Origin: Candidatus Synechococcus calcipolaris G9
GTDB lineage: Bacteria; Cyanobacteriota; Cyanobacteriia; Thermosynechococcales; Thermosynechococcaceae
Direction of reading: 5' to 3'
Assembly (NCBI RefSeq): GCF_029582805.1
Contig: NZ_JAKKUT010000002.1
Coordinates: 1,388,001 to 1,452,000, forward strand
Length of the DNA: 64,000 bases
Part shown: in pieces, positions 35,439-64,000 of the stretch
How the letters are laid out: each line of letters opens with the position of its first letter
How positions within the stretch are numbered: the first letter of the stretch is position 1
Position numbers and translations under genes: made by a program
Notes under the pieces: generated by a model
Database searches by the model: none
Seen by the model: the letters and a program-made list of their open reading frames with translations, nothing else
What the model was told of the DNA's origin: nothing

Positions 35439-35624
35439 AGGAATCTATCTCGCTCACACATCGCTCACATATATGCTATATGCCTAGTGGCACACCTAGC
35501 CTAGCGAATTTTGGCACAGGGTGGAACATGACTCTTTATTCCCCCTAGGGCGATCGCTGGGAATGTATGCAACTTTTAGGATCATATTCAAATATTCAAA
35601 TTCTCCATGGGTCAGGTGCATCGT

Positions 35625-36297
35625 ATGAAATGGCTGTACGGACTGTATATTGCGGCGGGGGTTGCCCTCTTTTTCAAAATGTTATTCATGCCGGATCAGG
35701 TCTTCGATGCGGATAATCGGGCGATCGTGGCGGCCATTGTCCAAGATAGTGGCATTCCCAATGCCCTTACGGGGATACTATTTCGCAATCGCCTCTATGA
35801 CACTATTTTTGAAGTGTTGGTCTTCACCGTTGCCATTATGGGGGTACGGTATTTATTGGCCAATGAGAAACCCCTGAGCACGGTACATCAATTGCCCGAT
35901 CAACCCTCCATTGTCCTGGCTCGCTTGGGGGCAACGATCGCCGCCATCGTCAGTATTGAACTGGCTCTGCGGGGGCACCTCAGTCCGGGGGGGGGGCTTT
36001 GCGGCGGGGGTGGCAGGGGGAACTGCCATTAGCTTGGTGGCTATTACCGCTGCACCGGAATGGATGGAGGCCCTTTATCAGCGATGGCGGGCCGGGACGG
36101 TGGAAAAAGTTTCAGTCTTAGTGTTTATTCTCTTGGCCTTCATGCCCCTGATCGGCCTGGAACTTCCCCAGGGGGAAATGGGCCGTCTTGTCAGTGGGGG
36201 GATCATCCCCTTGCTGAATGTTTTGGTGGCGGTGAAGGTGGCCCTTGGTTCCTGGGCTGCGATCTTGCTTTTTATCCGCTATCGTGGGCTATTGTGA
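35625..36297 (+). pseudogene. MnhB/MrpB-like antiporter subunit, frameshifted at a 10-G tract
   Basis: A membrane protein related to subunit B (MnhB/MrpB) of Mrp-type Na+/H+ antiporters. The first frame gives helices and RLYDTIFEVLVFTVAIMGVRYLL, then ALRGHLSPGGG. At 35987-35996 ten consecutive G residues shift the frame, after which FAAGVAGGTAISLVAITAAP and VSVLVFILLAFMPLIGLE continue in the other frame. With nine G residues the two halves join into the family's conserved HLSPGGGFAAG motif. This may be a sequencing error, a true mutation, or a slippage-controlled gene. ATG at 35625 follows AGGTG; ATG at 35607 is possible. No other mrp genes are near. The end overlaps nanE by nine bases. Confidence 0.72.
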
Positions 36298-62904: not shown

Positions 62905-64000
62905 TTAGGTTTCCTTTGGTTCAATCCATTGGCCATCCGCCTTAATTAAATTAATGAGTTCAATCACCCCCTGATCTTCGGGCACTTTTTTCACCTCGTC
63001 TCGACCGCGATAGAGGGAAATAAACCCCGGTTGTTTACCCACATAGCCATAGTCAGCATCGGCCATTTCGCCAGGGCCGTTGACAATACAGCCCATGACG
63101 GCAATATTTAAGCCCGTCAGATGACTGGTGGCTTCTCGCACCTTATGTAAAACCTCTTCCAGATTAAAGAGGGTGCGCCCACAGGAGGGACAGGCGACAT
63201 ACTCGACCATGGTGCGCCGCAAGCCCAGGGCCTGCAAAATACCGTAGCAAACGGGAATTTCTTTTTCAGGGGCTTCGGTGAGGGATACACGAATGGTATC
63301 GCCAATGCCTTCAGCCAAGAGGGTGCCAATGCCTGCCGTAGATTTAATCCGTCCGTATTCGCCATCCCCCGCTTCCGTTACCCCTAAATGTAAGGGATAG
63401 TCCATTCCCAGTGCCTCCATGCGCTTCACCATGAGCCGATTAGCGGCAATCATCACGGGTACACGGGAGGCTTTCAGGGAAATTTCTAAATGATAAAAAC
63501 CAAAGGATTCACACATCCGAATAAATTCTAGGGCTGACTCTACCATGCCTTCGGGGGTGTCGCCGTAGGTAAAGAGCATCCGCTCGGCCAAGGAGCCATG
63601 GTTGACTCCAATGCGCATGGATTTGCCCTGATCTCGGAGGGACTCTACCAAGGGTTTGAGGGTTTCCCGGATTTTTTCACCAATTTCGTTAAATTCGGCT
63701 TGGGTATATTCGGTGCGATCGGCCTTGGGTTTTTCAAAGACATAGAGGCCGGGATTAATCCGCACGTTATCGACATAGTTGGCGACTTCTAGGGCAATTT
63801 TCATGCCATTGTGATGGACATCGGCGACTAGGGGAACAGGTTGATAGGTTTTGTAGAGGCGATCGCGGATTTCTTCCATGGCCTTGGCGTGGGCAAGACT
63901 GGGAACGGTGACACGGACAATTTCACAGCCAATTTCATGTAACCGGCGAATTGCGGCTACGGAGCCAGGAATATCTAGGGTATCTTCATTGATCATGGAT
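62905..64000 (-). CDS. ispG: 4-hydroxy-3-methylbut-2-enyl diphosphate synthase, partial
   Basis: IspG reduces MEcPP to HMBPP in the MEP isoprenoid pathway. The frame continues past the right edge (codon for Ser before the first Met), so about 40 N-terminal residues are missing. Visible are the TIM-barrel part [16 protein letters not shown] and the iron-sulfur ligands CPSC in [13 protein letters not shown], then Cys in GCIVNGPGE with the Glu. ADADYGYVG ends the reductase domain. Bacterial two-domain type. Confidence 0.97.

What the first reader, a model, noticed from the sequence alone, without database searches (positions are those of the whole stretch)
35987..35996. Ten-G tract breaks an MnhB/MrpB-like gene at a conserved motif
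The frames before and after the tract join into HLSPGGGFAAG if nine G are read. Homopolymer G runs are classic sites of phase variation and of transcriptional slippage, as well as of sequencing error. Other mrp genes are absent, so this is an orphan subunit whose expression could be switched.
Basis: partly seen in the sequence, partly recalled or inferred. Interest (0 to 1): 0.6.

Follow-up and report, generated by a model that had tools for sequence, protein, structure and literature searches.

The report
G-run miscall in cyanobacterial mrpB gene
A run of ten Gs puts a conserved ion-transporter gene of a cyanobacterium out of frame, but the same assembly shows the same one-extra-G fault in long G runs of genes the cell should not live without, so this is most likely a sequencing or assembly miscall of nine Gs rather than a genetic switch.

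Summary
The ten-G tract (35987-35996) is present in the given sequence. It splits a cyanobacterial mrpB/mnhB gene (35607-36297) inside the motif HLSPGGGFAAG; nine G would keep one frame. The switch reading is not supported. In 126 homologous loci the motif is in frame and the run is 2-8 G. Both halves here keep the family's near-invariant residues (34/37 and 48/49), so the gene is not decaying. In the same assembly 5 of the 8 G runs of ten or more are out of frame, all by one G too many. They include the only hemY (no HemJ found) and ispG, which a phototroph should need. Runs of 8-9 G in this genome are in frame in 47 of 49 classifiable cases, and runs of ten or more in sampled relatives in 27 of 29. 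A length-dependent +1 overcall explains all of this at once. A real 9/10-G mixture or slippage rescue cannot be excluded without reads. "Other mrp genes are absent" holds for the window only: mrpE/F/G-like and MbhD-like genes lie about 0.71 Mb away, so mrpB has been separated from its usual operon.

The parts
35607..36297 (+). mrpB/mnhB gene (cyanobacterial Mrp antiporter subunit B), split into two frames at the tract
   Evidence: NF009219 and PF04039 matches of both halves; both halves conserved
35987..35996 (+). ten-G tract; nine G would keep the frame
   Evidence: direct sequence; homologues have 2-8 G and an intact frame
35973..36007 (+). codons of the conserved motif GHLSPGGGFAAG in which the tract lies
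   Evidence: motif present in frame in all 126 homologous loci read; PGGGF shared with B subunits of solved complexes 6u8y and 6cfw

Best explanation
The gene is an ordinary cyanobacterial mrpB/mnhB (subunit B of an Mrp-type cation/proton antiporter). Its Pro-Gly-Gly-Gly motif is written with a G-rich codon choice, CCG GGG GGG GGC, a nine-G run. The tenth G is most likely a +1 length miscall by sequencing or assembly, a fault that in this assembly affects G runs of about nine or more. Shown: the tract, the two conserved halves, and the same +1 pattern at other long G runs including genes that should be essential. Inferred: that the DNA of the strain carries nine G and the protein is made whole.
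For: 5 of 8 G runs of ten or more in this assembly are off frame, all by +1, including single-copy hemY (no HemJ found) and ispG. G8-G9 runs in the same genome are in frame in 47 of 49 classifiable cases, and runs of ten or more in seven family members in 27 of 29; Fisher p 0.00025 and 0.0023. Both halves of mrpB keep near-invariant residues. No homologue has a broken frame or a run over 8 G at the site. In T. elongatus HemY is the sole protoporphyrinogen oxidase (PMC4500134). Spurious G extension at G tracts is documented for Illumina reads (PMC9187656). A frameshift found in one genome only, with homologues intact, is usually read as sequencing error or a recent indel (PMC3711429).
Against: The sequencing platform is unknown and no reads were available. 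The frame calls rest on open-frame length and some are near gene starts. Some runs of ten or more in this assembly are in frame, so the fault is not universal. A HemG-type oxidase was not searched for. One A10 tract is also off frame, in the other direction, so not every fault is a +1 G.
Confidence: 0.67

Rival explanations
1. The tract is truly variable in the population (9, 10 or 11 G) by replication slippage, and the assembly recorded a common off-frame allele. This may be neutral instability or a phase-variation switch of the antiporter.
For: G tracts of this length do vary in bacterial cultures; in Bifidobacterium breve the reference says G11 while the culture was about 37% G11 and 60% G12 (PMC9187656). 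Several long G runs here are off frame.
Against: The same shift is found in hemY and ispG, where an off allele in most cells should be lethal. The tract is not kept in relatives. Runs of ten or more G are not enriched in the genome.
Confidence: 0.2
2. The tract really is ten G and a full-length protein is still made from part of the mRNA because RNA polymerase slips on the G run; the same would hold for hemY and ispG.
For: Explains why several needed genes tolerate +1 runs with no other decay. Slippage rescue of homopolymer frameshifts is shown or proposed for poly-A/T tracts in Buchnera and Blochmannia (PMC3017870).
Against: Those cases are A/T tracts in AT-rich endosymbionts; I found no cyanobacterial poly-G case in the papers searched. 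Relatives with equally long G runs mostly keep them in frame. No RNA data.
Confidence: 0.06
3. A real, recent +1 mutation has inactivated mrpB in this strain, perhaps tolerated because the gene was already separated from its operon.
For: mrpB stands alone while mrpE/F/G-like and MbhD-like genes lie about 0.71 Mb away. 102 of 290 class members sampled gave no match, so the gene can be absent.
Against: No other damage in either half, and the same +1 pattern occurs in genes that should not be losable.
Confidence: 0.07

Closest known systems
Cyanobacterial mrpB/mnhB (NCBIfam NF009219, Pfam PF04039), last gene of group-3 mrp clusters
   Same: Sequence, length, motif HLSPGGGFAAG, and near-invariant residues in both halves.
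   Different: Split by a ten-G run as sequenced, and separated from the mrpE/F/G-like and MbhD-like genes by about 0.71 Mb, whereas 78 of 80 named relatives have an MbhD-like gene directly upstream.
G-tract phase variation, e.g. the Bifidobacterium breve pilus loci (PMC9187656)
   Same: A run of ten or more G within a coding sequence, off frame by one.
   Different: Those tracts recur across related strains and sit in surface genes; here no relative has the tract and the gene is a membrane antiporter subunit. No length variation was observable.
Slippage-rescued homopolymer frameshifts of Blochmannia and Buchnera (PMC3017870)
   Same: Several needed genes carry single-base shifts in homopolymers without other decay.
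   Different: Poly-A/T in AT-rich endosymbionts, against poly-G in a cyanobacterial genome of about 50% GC, with no RNA evidence.

Membership tests
MrpB/MnhB antiporter subunit (NF009219 / PF04039) | Profile match over the full length | tested here: met
   The two halves together cover model positions 1-220 of 220 of NF009219. Neither half alone spans it; the first exceeds the curated score (185.8 vs 179), the second just misses (173.9).
MrpB/MnhB antiporter subunit (NF009219 / PF04039) | Conserved motif and near-invariant residues | tested here: met
   34/37 and 48/49 columns that are at least 95% conserved are kept.
MrpB/MnhB antiporter subunit (NF009219 / PF04039) | Located in an mrp cluster | tested here: not met
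   Neighbours are a TamB-like gene and a NanE-like gene (names from my reading of the sequences); the mrpE/F/G-like and MbhD-like genes are at C2:711025-712706.
Phase-variable locus (simple-repeat switch) | Tract conserved or recurrent in relatives at the same site | tested here: not met
   126 homologous loci: run of 2-8 G, all in frame.
Phase-variable locus (simple-repeat switch) | Tract length differs between cells of one strain | not testable with these tools
   No reads and no second assembly were available.
Transcriptional-slippage gene | mRNAs of mixed tract length | not testable with these tools
   No RNA data.
Homopolymer sequencing/assembly miscall | Same fault at other long runs of the same assembly, including genes that must work | tested here: met
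   5 of 8 G runs of ten or more are +1 off frame, including hemY and ispG; 2 of 49 classifiable at G8-G9.

The most novel reading that the evidence does not exclude
The tracts are real, and this cyanobacterium tolerates +1 shifts at G runs of ten or more in several needed genes (mrpB, hemY, ispG, an FhaC-like gene) because its RNA polymerase slips on poly-G, giving a mixed pool of transcripts with some in frame. That would be genome-wide slippage rescue at G runs in a free-living bacterium.
Probability: 0.06. Interest if true: 0.6.

Novelty: not a real feature. Interest (0 to 1): 0.12.

Why it matters
Mainly as a caution: long G runs in this assembly carry single-base length faults that make needed genes look broken, so no pseudogene or switch should be inferred from them. 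If the tracts were real, the genome would be a test case for slippage rescue at poly-G.

Tried and rejected
Old pseudogene: rejected, both halves keep nearly all near-invariant columns. Tract conserved in relatives: none among 126 homologous loci. Orphan because other mrp genes are absent: rejected, mrpE/F/G-like and MbhD-like genes were found elsewhere; the PF01899 genome search missed MrpE, while a direct scan gave a match below the curated cut-off. A first read-through with a four-letter code word shifted frame at every GGGG and was discarded. A paper search for the strain and its platform found none. Promoter and terminator scans gave nothing informative.

Full report
Observation. The window holds exactly ten G at 35987-35996. 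The frame entering the tract from 35607 gives ...RGHLSPGGGLCGGGGRGNCH and stops at 36032; the frame leaving it gives GGGFAAGVAGGTAISLV... to the stop at 36295-36297. The two pieces match consecutive parts of one family, NF009219 'putative monovalent cation/H+ antiporter subunit B', at model positions 1-125 and 117-220 of 220, and both match Pfam MnhB above its cut-off. A run of ten is not itself surprising: a first-order Markov model of the window expects 0.43 for G and 0.30 for C, and the 3.30-Mb genome holds only eight runs of ten or more (two runs of eleven are each listed twice there).

What the gene is. It is the cyanobacterial B subunit of an Mrp-type cation/proton antiporter. 188 of 290 sampled members of the class have a match. 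Solved relatives are the B subunits in 6u8y, 6cfw and, weakly, 6z16; the PGGGF motif is shared with the first two in the printed alignments. In Bacillus MrpB the substitution P37G disturbed complex assembly and F41A impaired complementation (PMC5703873). P37 and F41 have the spacing of the P and F of PGGGF, but I did not align that protein, so the correspondence is an inference.

Relatives. I read the motif DNA in 126 distinct homologous loci. Every one is in frame, and the longest G run is 2, 3, 5, 6 or 8, never 9 or more. The window's two halves keep 34 of 37 and 48 of 49 columns that are at least 95% conserved. Their mean identities to the family (0.64 and 0.73) lie inside the family ranges, toward the low end (ranks 10 and 17 of 126 from the lowest). 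The gene therefore shows no decay other than the tract.

The rest of the genome. All G runs of ten or more were examined. In frame: C2:271697 (G10), C5:94245 (G10), C7:86557 (G11). Out of frame by one G too many: this tract; C2:1452087 (G10) in the N-terminal part of ispG (GcpE match E 1.7e-124; the start ATG ACG CAA ... runs into CCC CCC CCC CGT TGA); C2:1742273 (G11) in hemY, whose two pieces match Amino_oxidase at positions 1-196 and 195-442; and C7:86597 and C7:86628 (G10 each) in a gene that looks FhaC/ShlB-like to me. By contrast, of 23 G9 runs 20 are in frame, 1 is off (C2:1564449) and 2 are unclear; of 30 sampled G8 runs 27 are in frame, 1 is flagged and 2 are unclear. Of 34 runs of ten or more sampled in seven genomes of the same family, 27 are in frame, 2 are flagged broken and 5 are unclear. 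The excess of off-frame long runs here is significant against both comparisons (p 0.00025 against own G8-G9 runs, 0.0023 against relatives), with the reservation that frame calls rest on open-frame length and that some are close to gene starts.

Why a miscall is the best reading. HemY is present once and HemJ was not found, although the same search found HemJ in a control cyanobacterium. In Thermosynechococcus elongatus HemY is the only protoporphyrinogen oxidase (PMC4500134); the window's family includes genomes that I take to be Thermosynechococcus (an inference from size and closure). HemG was not searched for. A truly broken hemY, and a truly broken ispG, should not be viable. So at least some +1 lengths in this assembly are unlikely to be simple fixed mutations, and the most economical account is a length-dependent overcall of G runs, which then also covers mrpB. 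Spurious extra G at G tracts is documented for Illumina reads (PMC9187656); the platform used here is unknown. A frameshift found in one genome alone, with intact homologues, is generally attributed to sequencing error or a recent indel (PMC3711429).

Rivals. A real 9/10 mixture would also put off-frame alleles into an assembly, and G tracts do vary in culture (PMC9187656). Slippage rescue would explain why several needed genes tolerate +1 runs; it is shown or proposed for poly-A/T tracts in endosymbionts (PMC3017870). A recent null allele of mrpB alone would not explain hemY and ispG. None of these can be excluded without reads or RNA.

Correction of the orphan claim. In 78 of 80 named relatives an MbhD-like gene lies directly upstream of mrpB, usually preceded by mrpG, in agreement with the published cyanobacterial order mrpCDCDEFGBB (PMC5703873). 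In this genome the MrpE-like, MrpF-like (by sequence resemblance only; no Pfam match), MrpG and MbhD genes are at C2:711025-712706, next to a tRNA-Ser and a phage-type integrase. mrpB is about 0.71 Mb away from them. I did not search for the large MrpA/MrpD subunits.

Verdict. The tract and the split frame are in the sequence as given, but most probably not in the organism.

Noticed in passing
L174:9339-12707 (G000:C2:709338-712706): mrpE/F/G-like and MbhD-like genes lie beside a tRNA-Ser(GCT) gene and a phage-type integrase with an integrated-element-like stretch beyond it; mrpB has been separated from this cluster.
   Followed up: partly
L176:3410-4856 (G000:C2:1741409-1742855): The only hemY-type protoporphyrinogen oxidase gene is split at an eleven-G run, one too many for the frame; no HemJ was found in the genome.
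   Followed up: yes
L004:1501-1510; the gene continues into the window at 62908-64000, minus strand: ispG is out of frame near its start at a ten-G run lying 87 bases beyond the window's end, one G too many.
   Followed up: yes
L008:1400-1760 (G000:C7:86557-86637): An FhaC/ShlB-like gene has three G runs of 10-11 within 80 bases, coding proline-rich repeats; two of them are each one G too long for the frame.
   Followed up: partly
L147:736-1985 (near G000:C1:277394): A glycosyltransferase-like gene is split at a run of ten A; here the shift is in the other direction (one short or two long).
   Followed up: partly
L148 and L169 (G000:C1:297701, C7:93703): Two IS630-like transposase genes have their two halves meeting at a run of nine A, as expected of frameshift or slippage sites in insertion sequences.
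   Followed up: no
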